DNA from: Marinoscillum sp. MHG1-6
GTDB taxonomy: Bacteria; Bacteroidota; Bacteroidia; Cytophagales; Cyclobacteriaceae
Assembly (NCBI RefSeq): GCF_024714475.1
Contig: NZ_JAMZMI010000001.1
Coordinates: 620,001 to 684,000, forward strand
DNA: 64,000 bases
Direction of reading: 5' to 3'
The position numbers and the translations under genes are program-made. Numbering within the stretch: position 1 is the stretch's first letter; each line of letters begins with the position of its first letter. This document shows, piece by piece, positions 10,813 through 22,160 of the stretch. A model generated the notes under the pieces. It had not been told where the DNA came from. It did not search any database and was given only the letters and a program-made list of their open reading frames with translations.

Positions 10813-12591
10813 TTATTCCTTGGTTTGGCGTATCAATTTGGTTCTGTAAGCATTGAAAATTCGCGCTTTAGAGATGAATCCAAGGTATTTTTCCTCTTCG
10901 ATCACAGGAAGGTTCCAAGCTTGTGTTAACTCAAATTTATTCATCACAGATTGCATTTTTTCTTGAGGGCTTACGAATGCAGGGGGTTTATGCATGATGG
11001 TCTTCACCACAACATTATTCTGTTTTTCGGCGTCAAACATGATTTCCCGGATATCATCAAGCGTTACAATGCCCTGCAGCTTTTTATTTTCGTCTACCAC
11101 AGGAAAGATATTCCGCTTGCTCTTTTTGACCAGCTTGACAAGTTCAGCTAAGGAGGCATCCGGGTGAATAGAAAGGAGGTCTTTTTCAATGATCTTTTTG
11201 ATGTTGATCTGGCTAAGGATCATCATGTCACGATCATTTTGAATGATCTGTCCCTTTTCTATCAGACGCTTGGTGTAGATGGAGTGTTTTTCGAAATAAG
11301 AGATGGTAACAAATGAAAGAGCAGACACCAGCATGAGTGGGACAAATAGCATATATCCACTGGTGATCTCAGCTATCAGGAATATACCCGTCAGTGGAGC
11401 ATGAAGCACCCCACTAAGCACCCCACACATACCTACCAGGGCGAAATTGCTTGCGCTGATAGCAAGTGTTGGGAACATAATATTAATAGCCTTCGCAAAA
11501 AGAAAGCCGGTGAAGCCACCCATGAATAATGATGGGGCAAAAACTCCTCCGCTACCTCCGGATCCAATCGTAAAGGCACTTGCGATGGGCTTGGCGATGA
11601 GTATGACAAGTAGAAAAAGAAGCACCAAATACTCATTGTCTTGTGAGCCATAAAGTGGCGTAGACTCTAGTAGGTTGGTAACATTCCCAAGTAGTAAATC
11701 TTTAATGGAATTATATCCTTCTCCGTAGATTGGAGGAAAGGTGAAAACGATAAAAGCCAGCCCGAGTCCACCCAGGAGTGCCCTGAGATAAATATTCTTG
11801 ATTTTTTGAATTAGGCCCTCAACCTTAAATAGCGTGCGGAAGAAGTAGAGTGAAACCAATCCGCAGACAACACCCAGCAACGCATAAAATGGAGTGTCTT
11901 GTGCGGTAAAGGGATCAGTCAGCTTAAACGAGAAAAGGATGTCTTCTCCAAGAAGAATAATGCTTACAAGTTGGCCACATACAGAGGCAATCAGAATCGG
12001 AATGAATTTGCTGATCTTAACCTCATTGAGAATAACTTCAATGGCAAATATGACCCCCGCTATGGGAGAGTTGAATATGGCGGATATGGCACCTGCGGCA
12101 CCGCAACCAATAAGAAGCGTTCTTTTCTTGTAATCAAGATGAACCAGGCTGCCCACATTGGCGCCAATGGCAGATCCGGTAACCACGATTGGGGCCTCGA
12201 GTCCTACAGACCCACCAAAGCCAACCGTAATCGCACTTTTCAACATGTTGGAGACCATGTAGCGCTTTCTAATTCGGCTGGAACTAATCGATATGGCCCG
12301 AAGTATTCGGGTGATTCCATGTCCCGGAGTATCCCTGACGATGAAGTACCTAACCAGCACGGTAAGCAGAATACCGACAGCCGGATATACAATATATAAA
12401 TAGCTGATATTAGTAATATCTATATTCTGCTGAAGGAGATGCTGAATAAGATGGACAGAGCTTTTTAATGTAACGGCCGCTAGACCGGCAATGAGGCCAA
12501 CTATACCCGCAATAATGAGTGTAAAGTTATTATCGTTGATGTGTTTTAGTCGCCAGACTAAAAACTTCATGATCGGGTTGGACTGTTCCAT
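10813..12591 (-). CDS. ClC-family chloride channel/transporter with C-terminal CBS pair
   Basis: A 592-residue membrane protein. About ten to twelve hydrophobic segments carry the ClC selectivity motifs GFGGSVGLEAPIV (around residue 125) and GSGGSGGVFAPSLF (around residue 345). A cytoplasmic pair of CBS domains follows, about residues 450-580. Positions equivalent to the gating glutamate (GLEAP) are present. Whether it is a channel or a chloride/proton antiporter cannot be decided. The CBS pair suggests regulation by adenosine nucleotides. It starts at ATG 12591, just after a hairpin downstream of map. Confidence 0.9.
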   Translation of the reverse strand: MEQSNPIMKFLVWRLKHINDNNFTLIIAGIVGLIAGLAAVTLKSSVHLIQHLLQQNIDITNISYLYIVYPAVGILLTVLVRYFIVRDTPGHGITRILRAISISSSRIRKRYMVSNMLKSAITVGFGGSVGLEAPIVVTGSAIGANVGSLVHLDYKKRTLLIGCGAAGAISAIFNSPIAGVIFAIEVILNEVKISKFIPILIASVCGQLVSIILLGEDILFSFKLTDPFTAQDTPFYALLGVVCGLVSLYFFRTLFKVEGLIQKIKNIYLRALLGGLGLAFIVFTFPPIYGEGYNSIKDLLLGNVTNLLESTPLYGSQDNEYLVLLFLLVILIAKPIASAFTIGSGGSGGVFAPSLFMGGFTGFLFAKAINIMFPTLAISASNFALVGMCGVLSGVLHAPLTGIFLIAEITSGYMLFVPLMLVSALSFVTISYFEKHSIYTKRLIEKGQIIQNDRDMMILSQINIKKIIEKDLLSIHPDASLAELVKLVKKSKRNIFPVVDENKKLQGIVTLDDIREIMFDAEKQNNVVVKTIMHKPPAFVSPQEKMQSVMNKFELTQAWNLPVIEEEKYLGFISKARIFNAYRTKLIRQTKE

Positions 12592-12599
12592 ATTTTTAA

Positions 12600-12619
12600 A
12601 AGGCCTGGACCTGGGCCTT
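12600..12619 (-). terminator. Possible hairpin between map and the ClC gene
   Basis: AAGGCC/GGCCTT with an eight-base loop; on the minus strand it is followed by TTTAAAAAT. It lies in the 44-bp gap before the ClC start, so it may be a weak terminator for map or an attenuator. Confidence 0.35.
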
Positions 12620-12635
12620 GCCAGATTTTGTATTG

Positions 12636-13427
12636 TTAAATAAAGACTCCATTAACTTTTTTGAGTGCTTCTTCTATATAATCAAAAGTTGAAAGTATCT
12701 CAGGCTTCCCATCCACTATGGCCACATCATGTTCAAAATGCGCAGAAGGCATTCCATCTGCCGTCACGATCGTCCATCCATCTGCTTTTTGCACGACGCG
12801 TCTTGTTCCCATATTGATCATTGGCTCAATTGCTAATACCAACCCCTCTTTTAAAAGAGGGCCTCGTCCTCGTTTTCCATAGTTTGGTACCTCTGGTGAT
12901 TCATGCATCTTTTTCCCGAGCCCATGTCCTACCAGCTCGCGAACCACCCCATAGCCAAAACTCTCCGTATAGCTTTGGATGGCATAACTGATATCTCCCA
13001 TTCGGTTGCCTGCTTTCATTTGCTCAATCCCCAGATAAAGGCTATCCTTGGTTACTTTGAGCAGCTGTTTCACCTCATGTGAAATTTCCCCCACGGCAAA
13101 AGTGTAGGCATGGTCTCCATAGAAACCATTTTTTAATGCGCCGCAATCCAAACCCACAATATCTCCTTCCTCAAGCGGTCGGTTTGTAGGCAGTCCGTGT
13201 ACCACTTGCTCATTTACAGAAGTGATGATGGTATTGGGGTAATCATAGAGACCCAAAAATCCCGGTTCTGCACCATGATCCCTAATAAAGTTCTCGGCGA
13301 GTTTGTCCAGCTGAAGTGGCGTAATACCCGGCTTGATTTCTTCTGCCATCAGGCCAAGGGTTTTTGATACGATCAGGGCACTTTCCCTCATCAGTTCAAT
13401 TTCTTCTCTGGACTTGTAATAAATCAT
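12636..13427 (-). CDS. map: Methionine aminopeptidase, type I
   Basis: Removes the initiator methionine from nascent proteins. The 263-residue enzyme has the metal ligands of the pita-bread fold in order: Asp and Asp in LDCGALKNGFYGDHAYTF, His in VGHGLGKKMHESPEVPNYG, Glu in LAIEPMINMG and Glu in AHFEHDVAIVDG. No N-terminal zinc finger or insert is present, as is usual for bacterial type Ia. The ATG at 13427 follows a plausible promoter. The ClC gene follows 44 bp downstream. Confidence 0.96.
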   Translation of the reverse strand: MIYYKSREEIELMRESALIVSKTLGLMAEEIKPGITPLQLDKLAENFIRDHGAEPGFLGLYDYPNTIITSVNEQVVHGLPTNRPLEEGDIVGLDCGALKNGFYGDHAYTFAVGEISHEVKQLLKVTKDSLYLGIEQMKAGNRMGDISYAIQSYTESFGYGVVRELVGHGLGKKMHESPEVPNYGKRGRGPLLKEGLVLAIEPMINMGTRRVVQKADGWTIVTADGMPSAHFEHDVAIVDGKPEILSTFDYIEEALKKVNGVFI

Positions 13428-13451
13428 CTATTTGTTGCGCTAAAGTGGCTG

Positions 13452-13485
13452 CAAAAGTAATGAAAACAAAAAACCCCCCGAACAA
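13452..13485 (-). promoter_or_regulatory. Putative promoter of map
   Basis: On the minus strand TACTTTTG (13452-13459) matches TAnnTTTG, with a TTG at 13483-13485 at 23-bp spacing. The -33 element falls in the terminator loop of the upstream gene, so the call is tentative. Confidence 0.35.
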
Positions 13486-13494
13486 TACGGGGGG
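13474..13494 (-). terminator. Intrinsic terminator of the SPOR-like gene
   Basis: A perfect seven-pair stem CCCCCCG/CGGGGGG with loop AACAATA. On the minus strand it is followed by TTTTTTGTTTT. It lies 28 bp after the stop of the 13523 gene. Confidence 0.85.
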
Positions 13495-13522
13495 CTTATC
13501 AATATTATGAATAAAGAAATTA

Positions 13523-14131
13523 TCAGGACTTGGATACGCCTTCCAGAACTTCTTTGATGTTTACTCTTTGACCATCTTTATAAGAAACAATGAAAGCATC
13601 TTTCACTCCCATTTCTCTAAGGTACTTTTTGAAGGTATCGGCTTCCCAGTAATCACGGAAGATACCAAGGGTAAACTTGTTTAGTCCACTCTCAGTGTCC
13701 TGATTAAAGTTCTCCTGACCATCATACTTAGCCAAATCCTTTTTCGCAAATGCACCGATCTGTACTTTGAAAACCACTCCAACAGCATCATTAATTCGGC
13801 CACCCGTATCCATGGGCTTCGGCTGAGCTGCTGCTTTCTTGGCCTCTGACAATTGAGATCTCAATTCAGAGATTTGAGATTCATATTGTGCTATCTGATC
13901 GTCCTTATCCGCCAGTTTGTTATCAACGCCGGAGAGTTCGCTTTGAAGACTGCTTACCTGACCTTTCAAGGATTTGTTTTCTTCTACCAAATTCTTAAAA
14001 TCCTCAGGCTCAGCCTTTTTGAGTCTTTTTTTCCACTCTTTCTTCTCTTTCTTAGACAACTTCTGAGCAGAAGCCTCAAATGCGAATGCTACACATAATA
14101 CAAGGGCGGTTAGGAGTAGTATTCTTTTCAT
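13523..14131 (-). CDS. Exported coiled-coil protein with SPOR-like domain
   Basis: A 202-residue secreted protein. The signal peptide (residues 1-22) ends FAFEASAQ. A basic stretch comes next (KKEKKEWKKRLKK), then a heptad-rich coiled coil about residues 45-95. The C-terminal domain (about 115-190) contains VFKVQIGAFAKKD and FTLGIFRDYWEADTFKKYLREMG, the beta-alpha-beta pattern of SPOR peptidoglycan-binding domains. It probably binds the cell wall in the periplasm, perhaps at the division site. It is a single gene with its own terminator, so it is probably transcribed alone. Confidence 0.75.
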   Translation of the reverse strand: MKRILLLTALVLCVAFAFEASAQKLSKKEKKEWKKRLKKAEPEDFKNLVEENKSLKGQVSSLQSELSGVDNKLADKDDQIAQYESQISELRSQLSEAKKAAAQPKPMDTGGRINDAVGVVFKVQIGAFAKKDLAKYDGQENFNQDTESGLNKFTLGIFRDYWEADTFKKYLREMGVKDAFIVSYKDGQRVNIKEVLEGVSKS

Positions 14132-14208
14132 CTTTTAAACAATTGAATATTAATAATTTACACTTGTCCCACTAAAGTACAATAATAACTTTTAAAAAAG
14201 CAAGAATT

Positions 14209-15612
14209 CTATTTTTTGAGTGAGCCAATCATGTCCTCTGGTTTTACCCAGGCATCGAATTCGTCACTAGTCAAAAATCCAAGCTCTATGGCTGCTTTTC
14301 TTAGTGTTGTGCCTTCCTTGTGAGCCTTTTTGGCGATTTTGGCTGCTTTTTCATAACCGATGTGCGTATTAAGCGCAGTTACAAGCATTAGCGAATTTTC
14401 TAGCTTTTCTTTGATAACGGGATAGTTAGGCTCGATACCATACGCACAGTTATCGTTGAATGATTCACAGGCATCTCCGATCAATCGGGCAGAAGTCAAT
14501 AAGTTGTAAACCATCATTGGCTTGAATACATTCAGTTCGAAATGACCATACATCCCTCCGGCAGAAACTGCCACATCGTTACCAATAACTTGTGCACAAA
14601 CCATGGTAAGTGCCTCGCACTGAGTTGGGTTGACCTTTCCTGGCATGATAGAAGAACCCGGCTCATTTTCAGGAATGATGATTTCTCCTATTCCACTTCT
14701 TGGTCCTGAACATAACATTCTGATGTCGTTGCCGATCTTCATCAAGCTTACCGCCAATTGCTTTAATGCTCCATGCGTTTCAACAATGGCGTCATGGGCT
14801 GCCAAAGCTTCGAACTTATTCTTAGCAGTTACAAAAGGAAGCCCGGAATTGTCAGCTATTTTCTTGGCAACAAGTACGTCATATCCGGCTGGAGTGTTTA
14901 ACCCTGTTCCTACGGCAGTGCCTCCCAATGCGAGTTCTGACAAATGCGAAAATGTATTTTCTAATGCCTTTAATCCATGATCAAGCTGGGCAACATAACC
15001 TGAAAACTCCTGACCAAGGCTTAAAGGTGTGGCATCCATGAAGTGAGTTCTTCCAATTTTTACCACATCCATGAAAGCTTCGGATTTAGCCTTAAGCGTA
15101 TCTCTCAACTTTTTCACCTTTGGAATGGTGATATCCACTACCATTTGGTAACTGGCAATGTGCATCGCTGTTGGAAAGGTATCATTCGATGACTGTGATT
15201 TATTTACATCATCATTTGGATGGATAATTTTTTGATCGTCCGAAAGCTTTCCACCGTTGATGACGTGGGCTCGATTAGCCACGACCTCATTACAGTTCAT
15301 ATTTGACTGGGTACCACTGCCTGTTTGCCAAATAACTAATGGAAACTGATCATCAAGATCCCCTGCAAGTATCTCATCACAGACTTTCCCAATCAATTCA
15401 CATTTTTCCTTTGTGAGTACACCAAGCTCATGGTTGGCTTCAGCTGCTGACTTCTTTAGAATGGCAAAAGCTCTTACCACTTCCATAGGCATTTGCATAT
15501 TTGCTCCACCTATTTTGAAGTTGTCTCTTGATCTCTGAGTTTGTGCTCCCCAGTATTTGTCGGCAGGTACTTTTACCTCGCCCATTGTGTCGTGTTCTAT
15601 TCTGTACTCCAT
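14209..15612 (-). CDS. fumC: Class II fumarate hydratase
   Basis: Interconverts fumarate and malate in the citric acid cycle. The protein contains the superfamily signature [15 protein letters not shown] (with the flexible SS loop), [13 protein letters not shown] and the [14 protein letters not shown] and [13 protein letters not shown] segments of class II fumarases. I place the start at the ATG at 15612 (467 residues, [13 protein letters not shown]). An upstream in-frame TTG at 15624 would add four residues without support. Aspartase is an alternative in the superfamily, but the N-terminus and length favour FumC. Confidence 0.95.
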
Positions 15613-15804
15613 GATTTTTGGCAATGGTTATTAATTGACCGCAATATAGCAACAGTACAAATTCCATCTCCTAAAAATGGCTAATTGAGGAAGATTTCAT
15701 ATCGAGCAACTCACTAGTTATAGTGACTCGTCCCTAGAGATAGCGAGCACGCATTTGCCTATTAGTAGCAATTGAGAATTTGAGTAGATAGAACTTTTTT
15801 TGCC

Positions 15805-15827
15805 TTATTTAGATTTGCTCTAAATAA
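15805..15827 (+). promoter_or_regulatory. Palindromic operator (probable metal-responsive box) before imelysin gene
   Basis: A perfect inverted repeat, TTATTTAGA, five-base spacer TTTGC, TCTAAATAA, ends 20 bp before the ATG at 15848. It overlaps TAGATTTG (15810-15817), a match to the -7 consensus, so a bound repressor would block transcription. A near copy precedes the DUF4856 operon at 22138-22160. The architecture is Fur- or DtxR-like, but the regulator is not identified. Confidence 0.7.
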
Positions 15828-15847: not shown

Positions 15848-16921
15848 ATGAGGAATGGACTGATATTGGTTTGTGTTGTTTTTACGATTTTGTCCTGTGA
15901 TGATAAAGGGGATAATCAAAGAGTGGATAACTTCGATAGAGGTCCAATGCTGACCAATATGGCAGAGAATATCATCATGCCGGCATACGCTGACTTTGCT
16001 ACCAAAACGGGTGCTTTGACAGACTCAATAGATCTACTACTTGATACCGTAACGGCAGAAAACCTGGAAGCCACACAAGCAGCCTGGCTGGATGCAAAGC
16101 TTTCATGGAAATATGCCCAGATTTTCAACTTTGGTCCGGTAGATACGGAGCTGTTAGAAGCCAACATTGATTATTGGCCGACAAGTGGGGTAGGTATAGA
16201 GAATGAAATCATGGATTTTGATGGTTCCACCACTTACCTGGATCTTGTAGGAGCAAACAAAAAGGGACTGGTAGCTGTTGAATACATATTATTTCATGCG
16301 GATTCAACAACTGTGATCGGAGAATTAAAGGAGGGCAAGCGGTTATCTTATTTGTCTGCGGTATCAAAAGAGCTGGAAACCAATGCGGATTTGATATTGA
16401 GCTTGTGGAATGGCGGTTACAAGTCTTCATTTGTAGAAAACACAGGGAATGACGTTGGGTCGAGTGCCACCGCTTTGGCTAATGAATTGATCATGCTTGT
16501 TGAGAAGATCAAAAATTATAAAGTTGCTTTGCCAGCGGGCATAAGTACCGGGGGAATTCTATCTCCACAAAGTGTGGAATCTTATTACGCCAAGGAATCG
16601 ATGGCTATGATCCTTAAAAACCTTGATGCGATTGAAGATGTATTCGCAGGCAAAGCTGGTCAGGGTTTTGATGATTATCTGGATACGCTGGCACTTGATA
16701 ATGGTGTCGAAAAACTTTCTTCAAAAATTATAGCTCAAATTGAGAAATGTCGCACCACCGCAGAGTCAATTGACGGACCACTTCAGGATGCATTGGATGC
16801 TCAGTCAGCAACCATAGAGCAGCTATTCATCGATTTGCAAGGCCTGACTGTGCTGATGAAAACAGATATGATGTCCAGACTCGGCCTGATCGTCACCTTC
16901 AGCGATAACGACGGGGATTGA
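15848..16921 (+). CDS. Imelysin-family (peptidase M75-like) lipoprotein
   Basis: A 357-residue lipoprotein. The lipobox FTILSC puts the lipidated cysteine at about residue 18. The imelysin fold is recognisable from SWKYAQIFNFGPVDT, IDYWPTS and KGLVAVEYILFH. Imelysins are outer-membrane or periplasmic proteins linked to iron regulation and uptake; most lack proven peptidase activity. The gene stands opposite a four-gene minus-strand operon encoding DUF4856, HTTM and a TonB receptor, and shares its operator. It probably acts in the same metal-uptake system, most likely iron. Confidence 0.88.
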   Translation: MRNGLILVCVVFTILSCDDKGDNQRVDNFDRGPMLTNMAENIIMPAYADFATKTGALTDSIDLLLDTVTAENLEATQAAWLDAKLSWKYAQIFNFGPVDTELLEANIDYWPTSGVGIENEIMDFDGSTTYLDLVGANKKGLVAVEYILFHADSTTVIGELKEGKRLSYLSAVSKELETNADLILSLWNGGYKSSFVENTGNDVGSSATALANELIMLVEKIKNYKVALPAGISTGGILSPQSVESYYAKESMAMILKNLDAIEDVFAGKAGQGFDDYLDTLALDNGVEKLSSKIIAQIEKCRTTAESIDGPLQDALDAQSATIEQLFIDLQGLTVLMKTDMMSRLGLIVTFSDNDGD

Positions 16922-17184: not shown

Positions 17185-19635
17185 TTATCTATCAAAGTTA
17201 TAACCCAGCGTAAAATAGAAACTTCTTCCATCTGAAGGCAGGATACCCGGCCCTGGGTACCCGGCCGCTCTTCTGGTAAAGTATCTGGAATCAGTTAGGT
17301 TATTAACTCCTGCCTGAACATTGAAGCTTTTGCCCAAAACATATTTAGCTGAAAAGTCCATTACCTGGTAAGCGGGGATCAGTCCTTCCACTGCGCCTGG
17401 GACAGGGCCTGCTGCATTGGAGGCATCGGAATATTGCTTGGCAAATGAGGTAATCTGAAGGGTAGATGAAAATCTGGAGGCTTTGTAACTAATTCCGGAT
17501 TTGACGCTATAAAGTGGAACAAGCTCCACCTGGTTGCCTTCAATGGCCGTCTCCTGTGAATGATGGTATTCAGATCCAATCACACCAATATTTAAGAAAA
17601 TGGACAACTGGTCTTCGCGTTTCTGGAATCTATTAATTAGACTGAACAAATTAGCTTCCATAAATGCTTCCACTCCATAGGTGCGAGCATCGGCAATATT
17701 GGTGCGGTATCGATAAGTCCTGTCAACCAGATTGTTGAATCTCGGATCCGGTTCCCTTACGAGAATAGTACCTATTTTGTCATTGTAGTTGAGCCAAAAA
17801 ACACTTACATCGAAATTGACCACGTTTTGCAGATTTCCTCTAACGCCTAGATCAAAGTTGTTTCCGAACTCATCTTTGATGTTTTCATCTACCTTCAGGG
17901 AAGGGTTGTTTACGCGGATATCATTGAAATTGATAGACCTGTAATTCTGAGAGAAGTTACCGTAGAATTCAACATCCTCGCTCATCTTATAGCTCACACC
18001 CACACCACCAAAAAGGAAGTCTCTTTTTCTCTCCAGCGTTTCAAGTATGGTCGTATCAAACAAAACATTCCCTGCGAGATCACTGGTGGTTTGTCGATAA
18101 TAACCGTCAGCCTTTGTGTTGATGTACTCGTATCTTACGCCTGGAGTAATGCTGAGTTTTTCTGAGAGTGTAATGATGTTTTCTGCGAAAACGGCCATGT
18201 TGATTCCCGGAAGATCAAAATCTGAGCCCTCAAGCATATTCGGATTATTGTATCGAAAGCTGGGCTGGTCACCATTAGGTCCAAGTCCCTGTCTACGATG
18301 CGTAAATCCTTTGTAATACCTGGTTCCAATTAAAAAGGCCGATTGTTTTCCTCCAATCAGGTAATTGTAAATGAGCCTTGTTTCATTACCCCAGTTGGTA
18401 AATCGGTCAGCCAGCAAATCTCTTTCTTCATTAATGTCGTCCGGGCGGTCAATTCTTCCAAGGTTACCCAGGGCCTCTTTATTACCAACCAGTGAGAAGG
18501 TTCGGCTATTCAATTTGAGGTTCGGCCCAAAACTATAATCCATGTGCAGGGTCAGAAGATTCCATCCCACCTGGAACCAGTTGCGATCCCGAATGGATTG
18601 TTTGGCATCTTGTTCAAAAAGCTGTTCGGTTAGTCCTCCCGGTTGCCGGGCCAGGTAATTCATCCGAGTGTATTCAATTCCCGCCTTGAAGGCATCGCTG
18701 AAATCGTAATGAATATCAACGTAGGAGGTGACAGAATTGAAATCCGTATTGCATCGCCAGCAATTACCTACTGCCGTACGGTTGAAAAAGAAATAGCTCA
18801 GCTTACCTTGTGTACCCCCGGCATCCACGTAGCTATTATAAAAACCAAGGGTGTTATAAGTCTGCTCAGTTGAGATTTCGAGCACTTTATCGTCCGGTGC
18901 CTGTTTGATTTTGAAGTTAACAAGCCCTCCGAATTGGGTTCCATATTGAAGGGATGCGGCACCACGTACCAACTCTACTTTTTCAACGGCCTGAATAGGT
19001 GGGGTATAATAACTTTCAGGGTAGCCTAATGCATCTGCAGAAATGTCAAAGCCATTCTGGCGGGTATTGAAGTTGGCGTTTCGATTGGGACTCAGGCCAC
19101 GTGTAGCTACGCCAATCTGTAGGCCCGCACAATCACTTTCCCAGATATTGGCACCGGGAATTTTGGCAAAAATTTGGCGAGTGTTGTTCGCCGCTTTGTT
19201 CGCAACCATGTCCTCCAGGACAATGACCTCTGTCTTCTTGGCTTCATAGATTCCGGTACCGTCGATGGCCTTCAGCCTGGTGATACCAAAGGAGTTGTCC
19301 TTCTGTCCTTTGACAACAACCTCATCAAGCTCCGTTTCCAACAACTTCATGTCAATCTTTATCGAGGTATTTCCATCGACAAATACTTTTTTGGTTAGGG
19401 TTTGATAACCCTCCATGAACACGGTAAGCGAATGGTTTCCCTTAGATACATTTTTAAATAAAAACTCACCGTTAGCATCGGCCTCTTCGAATCGGTCGCT
19501 TTGATCCAATATCAAAGTGGCTCTTTCTGAAGCATTCTTTTCAGTATTTACACTACCGCTTAATTGGTACTGGGCAAATGCAAGGTTTGACAGCATCAAT
19601 AAAAACAGGGCGCTATAATATTTAAATGCTTTCAT
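17185..19635 (-). CDS. TonB-dependent receptor, FecA-like
   Basis: An outer-membrane receptor of about 816 residues. Order: signal peptide ending NLAFAQ, a carboxypeptidase-regulatory-like beta domain about 25-105, the plug with VVVKGQKD and VELVRGAASLQYGTQFGG, then a 22-strand barrel ending in FYFTLGYNFDR. Plug and barrel resemble ferric-citrate-type receptors. I take the ATG at 19635, which overlaps the HTTM stop as ATGA. The in-frame ATG at 19659 would place polar residues before the signal peptide. Two cysteines (ESDCAG and NCWRCN) are unusual. It probably imports a ferric or other metal chelate delivered with the imelysin and DUF4856 proteins. Confidence 0.92.
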   Translation of the reverse strand: MKAFKYYSALFLLMLSNLAFAQYQLSGSVNTEKNASERATLILDQSDRFEEADANGEFLFKNVSKGNHSLTVFMEGYQTLTKKVFVDGNTSIKIDMKLLETELDEVVVKGQKDNSFGITRLKAIDGTGIYEAKKTEVIVLEDMVANKAANNTRQIFAKIPGANIWESDCAGLQIGVATRGLSPNRNANFNTRQNGFDISADALGYPESYYTPPIQAVEKVELVRGAASLQYGTQFGGLVNFKIKQAPDDKVLEISTEQTYNTLGFYNSYVDAGGTQGKLSYFFFNRTAVGNCWRCNTDFNSVTSYVDIHYDFSDAFKAGIEYTRMNYLARQPGGLTEQLFEQDAKQSIRDRNWFQVGWNLLTLHMDYSFGPNLKLNSRTFSLVGNKEALGNLGRIDRPDDINEERDLLADRFTNWGNETRLIYNYLIGGKQSAFLIGTRYYKGFTHRRQGLGPNGDQPSFRYNNPNMLEGSDFDLPGINMAVFAENIITLSEKLSITPGVRYEYINTKADGYYRQTTSDLAGNVLFDTTILETLERKRDFLFGGVGVSYKMSEDVEFYGNFSQNYRSINFNDIRVNNPSLKVDENIKDEFGNNFDLGVRGNLQNVVNFDVSVFWLNYNDKIGTILVREPDPRFNNLVDRTYRYRTNIADARTYGVEAFMEANLFSLINRFQKREDQLSIFLNIGVIGSEYHHSQETAIEGNQVELVPLYSVKSGISYKASRFSSTLQITSFAKQYSDASNAAGPVPGAVEGLIPAYQVMDFSAKYVLGKSFNVQAGVNNLTDSRYFTRRAAGYPGPGILPSDGRSFYFTLGYNFDR

Positions 19636-20966
19636 TGATTTGGATAAGGTAAGATCCATGATTTATTAGCCCAGCTTTCTTTTTGTGCTGCGAGGTTGAC
19701 AGAATTATCGATAAAGGGTTGACTCATTTTTCCATTAAGGGTCACATAGCCTTCTGCGGTTACCGTAGGGTTTTGAATGCCTAGGGAGGTGTATTCTTCC
19801 TCCAGAAAATGAGCAAATTGGAGAATCATATCTGGTTGTGTACTCATTTCACGCTCCTGAAAAGGAGTTAGAAAATCACGATTGTTGACCAGGAAGTTTT
19901 TGTTGCTTGCTTTATCCCTGACAGAGAAAGTGACATTCCCCAATTTCTCCATGAGCATGACTCTCCATGAAAACCGGTAGCCTTGTTCATGCCAAAACAG
20001 ATGATCCGGGTAGGCCAGGTATCTGAACGGGAATGCCAATTGAATCAGACAATAGGTTCCAAGGGCAAACCCAATAAGTCTGTAAGGTCGGTTGCCGGTT
20101 TGATAACCATACTGTCTGCCAACATTTAGAAGATTTTCAAAGAAACTAATCACTTGTTCATGAAACGCCGACGAAAAGAATATCAGCGTAGAAAGGATCA
20201 TAATGTACGGGAACATTCCGATAGGGAACAGTATAGCTGTAGTGACGTGAAATATGACCACCATGAGGAAGGCGAATGGCCTCGTTTTTCTTCCTAAGAG
20301 TAGGAAAGGGATACAGAGGTCGTAAAGGGCGCCACACCAGCTAAAGAAATAGGCGGCCGCTTCATATTTTAAATATGGCCCAAGGATGGGCAAATGCGAT
20401 TTTGCCGGAAGCCAGATCTTAAGCGGCATCGCCTCCAGTAACCAGTCCGGGTTGATTTTGGCGAGACCCGCATAAAAGTAGACCACACAAAGTTGAAACT
20501 TTATAATGTTGATCGTCCAGGCAGAGACTTCATGAGAAGCAATTCCTTTAAACAATTTGCAATCAAAGGAGAATCTCGAATTCGCAGGAAGCCAAATCAT
20601 TAGAAATGCGATAAGACTGACGAAGTAGTAATGGTTAAGGTAGGTGGTCTTATCGATGAGCTCGATGTAGGTAAACGTCAGGAAAAATCCTATAATAGCG
20701 ATTCGGTAAAATAGCCCAACGGCAACCATCAGGGCCAGAATGATCAGGGCGCCAAACAGCCAGTACATTCCTGTTCCCGGCAAGGCTTTTACCCACTCAA
20801 AACCGTAATAAGTAAAATGAAATTTTGGGAGAATATAGAATTCTTCGATCCATCCCTTAGCCCAAAAACGCACTCCTCCCAGGGCCATCATAAAGCCAAA
20901 AAGCACCCTGAAAAAAATCAAGGGTGCTACTGGGATCTTTTGCGATATGAGCTTTTCAAAAAGCAC
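19632..20966 (-). CDS. HTTM domain membrane protein (vitamin-K-dependent gamma-carboxylase-like)
   Basis: A 444-residue protein with several membrane helices in the first 290 residues and a soluble C-terminal domain of about 150. The segment LIDKTTYLNHYYF (Lys106, Asn111, His112) resembles the conserved stretch around the catalytic lysine of vertebrate gamma-glutamyl carboxylase, which makes Gla residues using reduced vitamin K. The start is a GTG at 20964-20966: an in-frame TGA lies one codon upstream and no ATG fits. It sits 16 bp after the DUF4856 stop and overlaps the receptor start. Carboxylation of a partner is a hypothesis; bacterial HTTM proteins are uncharacterised. Confidence 0.85.
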   Translation of the reverse strand: MLFEKLISQKIPVAPLIFFRVLFGFMMALGGVRFWAKGWIEEFYILPKFHFTYYGFEWVKALPGTGMYWLFGALIILALMVAVGLFYRIAIIGFFLTFTYIELIDKTTYLNHYYFVSLIAFLMIWLPANSRFSFDCKLFKGIASHEVSAWTINIIKFQLCVVYFYAGLAKINPDWLLEAMPLKIWLPAKSHLPILGPYLKYEAAAYFFSWCGALYDLCIPFLLLGRKTRPFAFLMVVIFHVTTAILFPIGMFPYIMILSTLIFFSSAFHEQVISFFENLLNVGRQYGYQTGNRPYRLIGFALGTYCLIQLAFPFRYLAYPDHLFWHEQGYRFSWRVMLMEKLGNVTFSVRDKASNKNFLVNNRDFLTPFQEREMSTQPDMILQFAHFLEEEYTSLGIQNPTVTAEGYVTLNGKMSQPFIDNSVNLAAQKESWANKSWILPYPNQ

Positions 20967-20982
20967 GGATCAATTAGTCAAA

Positions 20983-22122
20983 TTATAAAGTGTCAGCAAT
21001 TGAAGCCAAATCAGGGTATGCTGTAGTTAATGTTGACTTGGCACTGGCAAGGCTTTCTGCATCTACCTCCCAGAAGTTTCCATCTGTTCCGAAATCAACG
21101 GTTAGGATAGTGTTGATTTCAGTAGCTGATATCTGTGCATTTGGGATGTACTTAAGAGCGTTGATAAATCCATAGCCTTCAGAAAGGTGGTGGAACATGT
21201 TACCCTGATCCTGAGCATTAAGATCAGTAAGCGCGCTGTTGATATAATGGATACCTGTAGCAGCAGCTACCAATTCCAGCCCCTCTGCAATCACGTCGAT
21301 CTGAGCCATTTTCGTTTCATGGTCATTCGCCACGATCGCTGCACGGCCTGTGATATATGCAGTCATGATTTTATCAGCTACTCCAAGGTCGGCATCACGG
21401 CTTTCAGTATACTCAGCCCAAAATCTATCTTCACTTTCTTCAAGCACCGGACTGCCTTGTGGGAAATCTACAGGTACACCCCAATAACCGAATGCTTCAT
21501 CCCAGTGATGCTCCATGGTGGTGTAATTTTTACCGTCAACGATGACAGTGTTATCGACATCCGCACCGATTTTTGTTTCAGTAAGGTATGAGTTGAAGAT
21601 TTGGTTGTAGATCAATGCGCCCATGAGGCCTTTTTCTACCATTTGAGTGAACTCCCAGCCTTTAGCATTTACGTTAATGTAAGCCTGGCTTGAAACCCTT
21701 AGCATTTGACCTCCAGTGCCGATGGATGCATCCACAGTAGTTTTGCTAACTGCTTCAGCTTCTTCGAAAAGGTTTTTATAGAAAGTAACATCAGCAGCAG
21801 AAGTCTTATCTTCGATTTGTTTGCCTGATGTATTCAAAGCCTCATCAGAAAAAGGGTTTCCTGTATTCGAGAACATGTTCAAAAGAACGGCAGCATCTAG
21901 TTGCTGACCAGAGTCTCCTGTTTTCAAATAAGCTTTGATCTCAGCCAGCATATCCAATCTGGCAGTTTGTCCTGAAAATGAAACAGATGACGAACCATCA
22001 CGCTCAAAGGTGTAAGTTGAAGGGATATCGTATTTTACATCTTCCTTTTCATCGCAGCTCGTAAATAATGATGCTGAAATGGCGCAGACTATAAGTAGCT
22101 TGTTTGGAAATGTGAATTGCAT
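20983..22122 (-). CDS. DUF4856 lipoprotein
   Basis: A 379-residue lipoprotein with lipobox SLFTSC, so the mature protein starts near residue 23 with CDEKED. The following YDIPSTYTFERDG and the later EHHWDEAFGYWGVP and GYGFINALKY are typical of DUF4856, a Bacteroidota family that often sits beside imelysin genes. It has many conserved aromatic and acidic residues and may bind metal or a metal complex. It is the first gene of the DUF4856-HTTM-receptor-ywbE operon. An operator copy overlaps its upstream region, 16 bp before the ATG. Confidence 0.82.
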   Translation of the reverse strand: MQFTFPNKLLIVCAISASLFTSCDEKEDVKYDIPSTYTFERDGSSSVSFSGQTARLDMLAEIKAYLKTGDSGQQLDAAVLLNMFSNTGNPFSDEALNTSGKQIEDKTSAADVTFYKNLFEEAEAVSKTTVDASIGTGGQMLRVSSQAYINVNAKGWEFTQMVEKGLMGALIYNQIFNSYLTETKIGADVDNTVIVDGKNYTTMEHHWDEAFGYWGVPVDFPQGSPVLEESEDRFWAEYTESRDADLGVADKIMTAYITGRAAIVANDHETKMAQIDVIAEGLELVAAATGIHYINSALTDLNAQDQGNMFHHLSEGYGFINALKYIPNAQISATEINTILTVDFGTDGNFWEVDAESLASAKSTLTTAYPDLASIADTL

Positions 22123-22137
22123 GTATGTCTATTAGTT

Positions 22138-22160
22138 TTATTTAGAATAATTCTTAATAG
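22138..22160 (-). promoter_or_regulatory. Second copy of the palindromic operator, before the DUF4856 operon
   Basis: TTATTTAGA, five-base spacer ATAAT, TCTTAATAG. The left arm is identical to the box at 15805-15827; the right arm differs at two positions. It lies 16-38 bp upstream of the DUF4856 ATG, so the two units are probably coregulated. Confidence 0.6.

What the first reader, a model, noticed from the sequence alone, without database searches (positions are those of the whole stretch)
19632..20966. HTTM carboxylase-like enzyme with the catalytic-lysine motif inside a metal-uptake operon
The product keeps a DKTTYLNHYYF segment (Lys106) like that of vitamin-K-dependent gamma-glutamyl carboxylase. 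It is translationally coupled to a receptor and sits beside two lipoproteins. One testable idea: it modifies glutamates of the imelysin or DUF4856 protein into metal-binding Gla residues, using menaquinone. This would be an undescribed bacterial uptake mechanism. The motif is seen; the reaction is pure hypothesis.
Basis: partly seen in the sequence, partly recalled or inferred. Interest (0 to 1): 0.7.

Follow-up and report, generated by a model that had tools for sequence, protein, structure and literature searches.

The report
Vitamin-K-type carboxylase in bacterial iron operon
A bacterium carries a structural relative of the human enzyme that uses vitamin K to activate clotting proteins, placed beside iron-uptake genes, and the same arrangement recurs in many members of its phylum, which suggests that this chemistry serves iron uptake, although its target is still unknown.

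Summary
On the minus strand, 19632-20966 encodes a 444-residue relative of vitamin-K-dependent gamma-carboxylase (VKGC): HTTM plus VKGC lumenal domain, phmmer E 2.7e-31 to human GGCX, model aligned to GGCX over 429 residues, rmsd 2.8 A, Z 31.6. Catalytic Lys218 is Lys170 and His160 is His112, each 81 of 81. The setting is an iron-type operon: around 80 homologues, imelysin lies upstream in 77, DUF4856 in 76, a FecA-like receptor downstream in 79. In the window the imelysin has moved to a convergent site, yet both units carry the same Fur-like palindrome. Among 98 relatives, 49 of 49 genomes with this carboxylase lineage have an imelysin, 6 of 49 without it do. The substrate is unknown: no Gla-like glutamate cluster is typical of the partners, and no well-conserved glutamate tracks the enzyme. 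Best reading: menaquinol-dependent Glu carboxylation of an iron-uptake lipoprotein, probably the imelysin. Catalysis is inferred.

The parts
19632..20966 (-). VKGC homologue (HTTM domain residues 10-266, VKGC lumenal domain residues 298-443), 444 aa
20457..20459 (-). Codon of Lys170, equivalent of GGCX catalytic base Lys218 (81 of 81 sequences); position computed from the GTG start
   Evidence: role of K218 from PMC12589487
20631..20633 (-). Codon of His112, equivalent of GGCX His160 (81 of 81)
   Evidence: role from PMC12589487
20649..20651 (-).
17185..19635 (-). TonB-dependent receptor, FecA-like by weak model matches; ATGA overlap with the VKGC stop codon
20983..22122 (-). DUF4856 lipoprotein (PF16148 E 5.6e-66), weakly similar to FEA1-related lipoproteins (NF038033 E 8.6e-9, below its cut-off); first gene of the unit
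15848..16921 (+). Imelysin-like lipoprotein (PF09375 E 3.6e-37), the only imelysin match of the genome; displaced, convergent with the receptor
22140..22158 (.). 19-bp Fur-like palindrome upstream of the DUF4856-VKGC-receptor unit
15807..15825 (.). The same palindrome (0 mismatches on one strand) upstream of the displaced imelysin gene

Best explanation
The gene encodes a bacterial member of the vitamin-K-dependent gamma-carboxylase family, of a lineage ('class A', my label) tied to an iron-uptake system made of a FecA-like outer-membrane receptor, an imelysin-like lipoprotein and usually a DUF4856 (FEA1-like) lipoprotein. Most likely mechanism: the enzyme sits in the inner membrane with its active site facing the periplasm; Lys170 deprotonates menaquinol from the cell's own quinone pool; reaction with O2 gives a strong base that removes a gamma-proton from a glutamate of a passing lipoprotein, and CO2 adds to give Gla; the Gla then serves as a metal ligand, for iron(III) or calcium. 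The likeliest target is the imelysin. Shown here: family, fold, conserved active-site residues, conserved gene group, shared box, near-perfect co-occurrence with imelysin, a menA gene. Inferred: topology, catalysis, O2 and CO2 use, Gla formation, target, regulation by Fur.
For: Homology and fold. Residues in 81 sequences (window and 80 homologues): K218>K170 81, H160>H112 81, N159>N111 81, A214>A166 81, W223>W175 81, F286>F239 81, F299>F252 81, M402>M337 81, F294>F247 80, V210>V162 80, G259>G212 80; residue roles from PMC12589487. Gene group: imelysin 77, DUF4856 76, receptor 79 of 80 named loci; 44, 37 and 41 of 48 class A loci from the relatives. Co-occurrence: 49 of 49 class A genomes have an imelysin against 6 of 49 without class A, Fisher 2.3e-21, kinship not corrected; where the class A gene stands apart from imelysin (G022, G077, G079, G094, and G098 and G099, the genomes of L059 and L077) an imelysin lies elsewhere in the genome. 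Box: 96 of 114 upstream regions over 8 bits, log-likelihood 779 against 28 after base shuffling; both window units carry it; other strong sites lie around feoB and before sufB and a multihaem cytochrome. menA present.
Against: No activity data. The homology ends near GGCX residue 508, so about 250 residues, with much of the propeptide-binding region, are absent. In all 81 sequences N158 is Leu, N290 Thr and M401 Val; K217 is Ala or Ser; R436 is replaced; of the six listed contacts to the quinone tail only A214 and G259 are kept. Partners have no typical Gla-like cluster (median of the largest glutamate count in 45 aa: imelysin 5, DUF4856 6, receptor 7). The glutamates of imelysin and DUF4856 conserved in over 93% are all kept in G010, G070 and G075, which have these genes without a class A enzyme; G070 and G075 do have a class B enzyme, so only G010 is a full absence. 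Three class A genes have none of the partners beside them (L123, L125, L145). No VKOR in the own genome, and VKOR does not track class A (14 of 49 with, 10 of 49 without; my tally).
Confidence: 0.5

Rival explanations
1. The enzyme is catalytically active, but its target is the FecA-like receptor, carboxylated while it crosses the periplasm unfolded.
For: The receptor is the next gene, overlapping by ATGA, and is the most constant neighbour in the named set (79 of 80), also in two loci where imelysin and DUF4856 were not found beside the enzyme (L059, L166).
Against: A receptor over 80 bits is missing downstream of 7 of 48 class A genes of the relatives. The one receptor glutamate that seemed to track the enzyme (E136, 114 of 115 linked receptors) is also Glu in 14 of 17 receptors from genomes without class A by score.
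Confidence: 0.15
2. The enzyme is a menaquinol-dependent base generator that acts on a small molecule (for example an iron carrier), or only epoxidises menaquinone, without modifying protein.
For: About 250 C-terminal residues of GGCX, with much of its propeptide-binding region, are absent, and the partners have no typical Gla-like region.
Against: Asn159 and His160 of the Glu pocket are kept in 81 of 81 and Tyr395 is Tyr in 64 and Phe in 17. No further gene was seen to recur in the loci whose genes were printed, but I did not cluster all neighbours of the class A loci.
Confidence: 0.2
3. The protein has no catalytic role any more and serves as a membrane assembly factor for the lipoproteins or the receptor.
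For: G010, G070 and G075 keep imelysin and DUF4856 without a class A enzyme, so it can be dispensed with.
Against: The equivalents of K218, H160 and N159 are invariant in 81 of 81 sequences, while a non-catalytic lysine (K154) drifts, 63 of 81.
Confidence: 0.1

Closest known systems
Human gamma-glutamyl carboxylase GGCX (VKGC)
   Same: Same fold over model residues 1-444 (GGCX 44-508, Z 31.6, rmsd 2.8 A, 429 aligned, 25% identity); Lys218, His160, Asn159 and 6 of 7 listed quinone-ring contacts kept
   Different: Lacks about 250 C-terminal residues; N158>L, K217>A, N290>T, M401>V, tail tunnel mostly changed; iron-type gene group; no VKOR found in the genome
Leptospira glutamyl carboxylase homologue
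   Same: Bacterial VKGC homologue, presumed acquired by horizontal transfer (PMC4555120, passage seen)
   Different: Not compared here; I looked at no sequence of it
Class B bacterial VKGCs (my label)
   Same: Same two domains; K218 28 of 28 and H160 27 of 28
   Different: Solitary, no neighbour family shared by more than 4 of 28 loci; mostly keep the human-like N158, N290 and M401; outside the class A clade except one row
Imelysin operons under Fur (P. aeruginosa PA4370-PA4373) and Tenacibaculum FecA with imelysin-like lipoproteins
   Same: Imelysin-like lipoproteins linked with iron uptake; a GxxxxE variant family is known (PMC3143127, passages); a FecA homologue and four imelysin-like lipoproteins abundant in vesicles (PMC10288586, passage)
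   Different: The word HTTM occurs in neither main text
FEA1-related lipoproteins (NF038033) and algal FEA1
   Same: The DUF4856 protein matches NF038033 weakly (E 8.6e-9); FEA1 is induced by iron deficiency (PMC8098128, passages)
   Different: 34.6 bits against a cut-off of 250; no solved structure matches clearly

Membership tests
Vitamin-K-dependent gamma-carboxylase (VKGC) | HTTM transmembrane domain followed by VKGC lumenal domain | tested here: met
   PF05090 and PF22777 far above cut-off
Vitamin-K-dependent gamma-carboxylase (VKGC) | Catalytic base Lys218 | tested here: met
Vitamin-K-dependent gamma-carboxylase (VKGC) | His160 and the Glu pocket (N159, Y395) | tested here: met
   H112 81 of 81, N111 81 of 81, Y330 position 64 Tyr and 17 Phe; N158 and R436, which hold the substrate backbone in GGCX, are replaced
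Vitamin-K-dependent gamma-carboxylase (VKGC) | Pocket for the vitamin K ring (F286, F294, F299, H160, V210, M401, W223) | tested here: met
   6 of 7 kept in 80-81 of 81; M401 is Val in 81 of 81
Vitamin-K-dependent gamma-carboxylase (VKGC) | Tunnel for the vitamin K tail (A214, G258, G259, V254, V255, N290) | tested here: not met
   Only A214 and G259 kept; a contact list of the human enzyme, not a proven family mark
Vitamin-K-dependent gamma-carboxylase (VKGC) | GGCX fold | tested here: met
   Z 31.6, 429 residues; Foldseek E 5.1e-21; predicted model
Animal GGCX subtype | Complete two-lobed propeptide-binding domain and arch | tested here: not met
   Homology ends near GGCX 508
Vitamin-K-dependent gamma-carboxylase (VKGC) | Makes Gla from Glu with vitamin K hydroquinone, O2 and CO2 | not testable with these tools
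   No biochemical data
Vitamin K cycle | VKOR to recycle the epoxide | tested here: not met
   No PF07884 match in the own genome; no link with class A in relatives
Imelysin (M75) family, partner protein | PF09375 domain | tested here: met
   E 3.6e-37
Imelysin (M75) family, partner protein | GxHxxE motif | tested here: not met
   GLVAVEY in the window; Pro at the His position in 65 of 78; a GxxxxE family is known
Iron-regulated (Fur) operon | Conserved operator-like palindrome | tested here: met
Iron-regulated (Fur) operon | Binding by Fur or response to iron | not testable with these tools
   Needs expression or binding data

The most novel reading that the evidence does not exclude
Vitamin-K-type carboxylation is a widespread bacterial device for iron acquisition: in many Bacteroidota a menaquinol-driven carboxylase puts Gla on the imelysin (or DUF4856) lipoprotein of a FecA-type uptake system to make an iron(III)-binding site, in place of the lost GxHxxE histidine, and the chemistry of blood clotting descends from, or runs parallel to, a metal-uptake chemistry of bacteria.
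Probability: 0.35. Interest if true: 0.93.

Novelty: new variant of a known kind. Interest (0 to 1): 0.75.

Why it matters
What the bacterial relatives of the clotting-factor carboxylase do is, as far as I know and as far as my paper searches show, an open question. Here one lineage has a clear setting (iron uptake), a short list of candidate targets, active-site residues that single substitutions can break, and named free-living hosts, so the question can be tested directly. If Gla is found, protein gamma-carboxylation would be an established bacterial modification with a role in metal uptake, and bacteria would offer smaller carboxylases for mechanistic work.

Tried and rejected
1. Lys106 as catalytic lysine: rejected.

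2. A glutamate that tracks the enzyme: receptor E136 looked promising (Glu in 114 of 115 linked receptors; Ala and Asp in G070 and G075), but 14 of 17 receptors from genomes without class A by score also have it (40 of the 49 such genomes searched, 19 places found, two further copies of one G043 receptor dropped; one of the 17, G085, has an enzyme that falls in the class A clade). Imelysin E118, Glu in 82 of 121, is Ala in G070 and Asp in G075, but already varies. Only three genomes allowed the comparison, and two of them have a class B enzyme.

3. Gla-like clusters in imelysin, DUF4856 or receptor: not typical; single orthologues reach 13, 12 and 11 Glu in 45 residues, not followed.

4. VKOR as part of the system: not linked.

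5. Solved structure for the DUF4856 fold: no clear match (phmmer; Foldseek, none at E 0.001; VIA-align best Z 7.8 to a catenin-like domain). The relation to FEA1 stays weak.

6. Conserved neighbours of class B enzymes: one ORF family in 4 of 28 loci, no family in more (ORFs of 110 aa or more within 5 kb).

7. Place of human GGCX in the tree: unresolved, long branch.

8. Two-mismatch genome scan of the palindrome: hardly above its reversed control (15+14 against 12+12); the one-mismatch scan (7+6 against 3+0) and the window test do better.

9. Literature (listings seen unless a passage is cited): HTTM with TonB-dependent and iron, 0 papers; two of DUF4856, imelysin, HTTM, 0 papers; bacterial carboxylase searches and imelysin with TonB and iron (20 of 274 listed) showed no description of this gene group; DUF4856 occurs in none of the 15 of 99 papers listed. 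The library is open-access PMC only.
Full report
WHAT IS THERE. The ORF at 19632-20966 lies on the minus strand, starts with GTG and has 444 residues. It carries the HTTM domain (residues 10-266, E 1.8e-79) and the VKGC lumenal domain (298-443, E 1.2e-55). It is the only HTTM match of its genome. The nearest solved proteins are human GGCX chains (E 2.7e-31, query 7-440 against GGCX 55-504). An AlphaFold2 model from 26 sequences (pLDDT 86, pTM 0.86) matches 16 GGCX entries first: best VIA-align Z 31.6, rmsd 2.8 A, 429 residues over GGCX 44-508; the next, unrelated, entry has Z 7.4. Foldseek agrees (E 5.1e-21, TM 0.83 on the query). The model's stretch 322-338, with Y330, V336 and M337, has pLDDT under 50, so that part of the pocket rests on sequence.

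THE LYSINE. In an alignment of GGCX, the window protein and 80 homologues, Lys170 (=K218) and His112 (=H160) are present in 81 of 81 bacterial rows, Lys106 is Lys in 63 of 81. [quoted passage not shown] Of its seven ring contacts (F286, F294, F299, H160, V210, M401, W223) six are kept in 80 or 81 of 81 and M401 is Val in all; of its six tail contacts only A214 (81) and G259 (80) are kept, N290 is Thr in all. N158 is Leu in all 81, K217 is Ala (77) or Ser (4), R436 is replaced in all. Homology stops near GGCX 508 of 758; by the paper's account the propeptide groove involves residues beyond that (I532), so substrate recognition should differ.

THE GENE GROUP. The unit reads DUF4856 (20983-22122), carboxylase, FecA-like receptor (17185-19635), all minus; carboxylase stop and receptor start overlap as ATGA. 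The imelysin gene (15848-16921) is on the plus strand beyond the receptor. The exceptions: L040 and L103 are cut by the contig end upstream; L046 has imelysin but no DUF4856 upstream; L059 has neither lipoprotein beside it; L077 has DUF4856, but neither imelysin nor receptor beside it. The hosts, by name, are Bacteroidota of several classes and Rhodothermota, at 50-58% identity.

TWO LINEAGES. PF22777 occurs in 58 of 98 relatives, up to three per genome, 80 places with the own one. All 79 others were fetched. With an HMM of the window enzyme and the 80 named ones, 48 of 79 reach 480 bits ('class A', lowest 497); the rest stay at 416 or below ('class B'; L130 and L158 are in two frames). In a tree of 68 rows (window, 27 of the 80 named, 12 class A and 27 class B of the first 40 fetched loci, human GGCX) class A is one side of a branch with support 100/100, with one low-scoring row inside (L147). 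Class B enzymes of those 40 loci stand alone, without a common neighbour, but keep K218 in 28 of 28 and H160 in 27 of 28. In the 48 class A loci imelysin is just upstream in 44, DUF4856 in 37, the receptor downstream in 41. In L133, L148, L152 and L190 DUF4856 is missing and a second imelysin lies further upstream.

CO-OCCURRENCE. Class A is in 49 of 98 genomes, imelysin in 55. All 49 class A genomes have an imelysin; 6 of the other 49 do (Fisher 2.3e-21, kinship not corrected; lists read by eye). Of the six, G008 holds the start of a carboxylase gene directly after its imelysin, cut by the contig end; G085 has the enzyme that falls in the class A clade (L147); G076 has only a weak imelysin match (1.2e-5). 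G010, G070 and G075 are clear exceptions; G010 has no PF22777 match, the other two have class B enzymes. Where class A stands apart from imelysin (G022, G077, G079, G094, and the genomes of L059 and L077) an imelysin lies elsewhere. DUF4856 is in 40 of 49 class A genomes and 5 of 49 others. The link with imelysin is thus the tightest and does not rest on adjacency alone.

REGULATION. A palindrome search by expectation maximisation upstream of 114 DUF4856 genes (window included) gave ATTTAGAnTAAnTCTAAAT: over 8 bits in 96 of 114, against 47 of 114 for the best motif in base-shuffled sequences, log-likelihood 779 against 28. In the window the pattern with up to 2 mismatches occurs at two places, 15807-15825 before the imelysin and 22140-22158 before DUF4856, counted as 4 matches on two strands; 0.44 expected, at most 3 in 100 shuffles. 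So the displaced imelysin has the same box. Genome-wide at one mismatch there are 8 places (7+6 strand matches, reversed control 3+0): the two of this system, two around the feoB cluster, one before sufB, one before a multihaem cytochrome c, one before a sigma-factor gene, one inside a long ORF; a 2-mismatch site lies before a ferritin gene. At two mismatches the total is hardly above control (15+14 against 12+12). That the regulator is Fur is inferred from the company; one paper search for such a box in Bacteroidetes found none.

MECHANISM. The cell has menA (E 2.1e-84), so it should make menaquinone; GGCX itself was solved with menaquinone-4 hydroquinone. By analogy with GGCX the active site faces the periplasm, through which lipoproteins and receptor pass. 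The most economical reading is Glu carboxylation of one of them in the service of metal binding. The imelysin is the best candidate: it is present in 49 of 49, and its GxHxxE motif has lost the histidine (GLVAVEY here; Pro at that place in 65 of 78). That loss is not specific: a GxxxxE imelysin family was described (PMC3143127, passages).

RESULTS AGAINST. No partner has a typical Gla-like glutamate stretch. Well-conserved glutamates of imelysin (E244, 116 of 121; E219, 104 of 121) and DUF4856 (E157, 108 of 112; E315, 112 of 112) are kept in G010, G070 and G075, which lack class A. A receptor glutamate that seemed to track the enzyme does not. VKOR is not found in the own genome and does not follow class A, so the epoxide would have to be reduced otherwise. 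Three class A genes have none of the three partners beside them.

KNOWN OR NEW. The family is known: a deposited record attaches 'peptidyl-glutamic acid carboxylation' to such a protein (Paracoccus albus), and a Leptospira homologue is mentioned in print (PMC4555120, passage). Iron roles of imelysins, and a FecA homologue with imelysin-like lipoproteins in Tenacibaculum vesicles, are in print (PMC3143127 and PMC10288586, passages). I found no paper that connects the carboxylase with this gene group (open-access library, mostly listings seen). I therefore file it as a new variant of a known kind, with a bold but testable reading attached.

Noticed in passing
L113-L116, L118-L120, L122, L124, L126, L128-L132 and others: A second, solitary group of VKGCs (class B) with conserved active-site residues and mostly human-like N158, N290 and M401 occurs in some of the same genomes, without a common neighbour; function unknown.
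   Followed up: partly
L133, L148, L152, L190: In these loci DUF4856 is missing and a second imelysin lies upstream; in L133 and L148 an ORF of 465 or 483 aa sits between the two imelysins.
   Followed up: no
L249 (G010), L251 (G070), L252 (G075): DUF4856 and imelysin (with receptor in G070 and G075) without a class A VKGC: natural absences useful for comparison, though G070 and G075 have class B enzymes.
   Followed up: partly
window 20983-22122: The DUF4856 model is confident (pLDDT 90) but has no clear match among solved structures.
   Followed up: partly
L260 and window 10813-15624: In G028 the gene group, with an extra imelysin upstream, lies near ORFs whose starts resemble the window's fumarase-like, methionine-aminopeptidase-like and chloride-channel-like genes, so the chromosomal neighbourhood seems shared (gene names by my reading).
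   Followed up: no
L079: Two DUF4856 genes in tandem before imelysin and VKGC.
   Followed up: no
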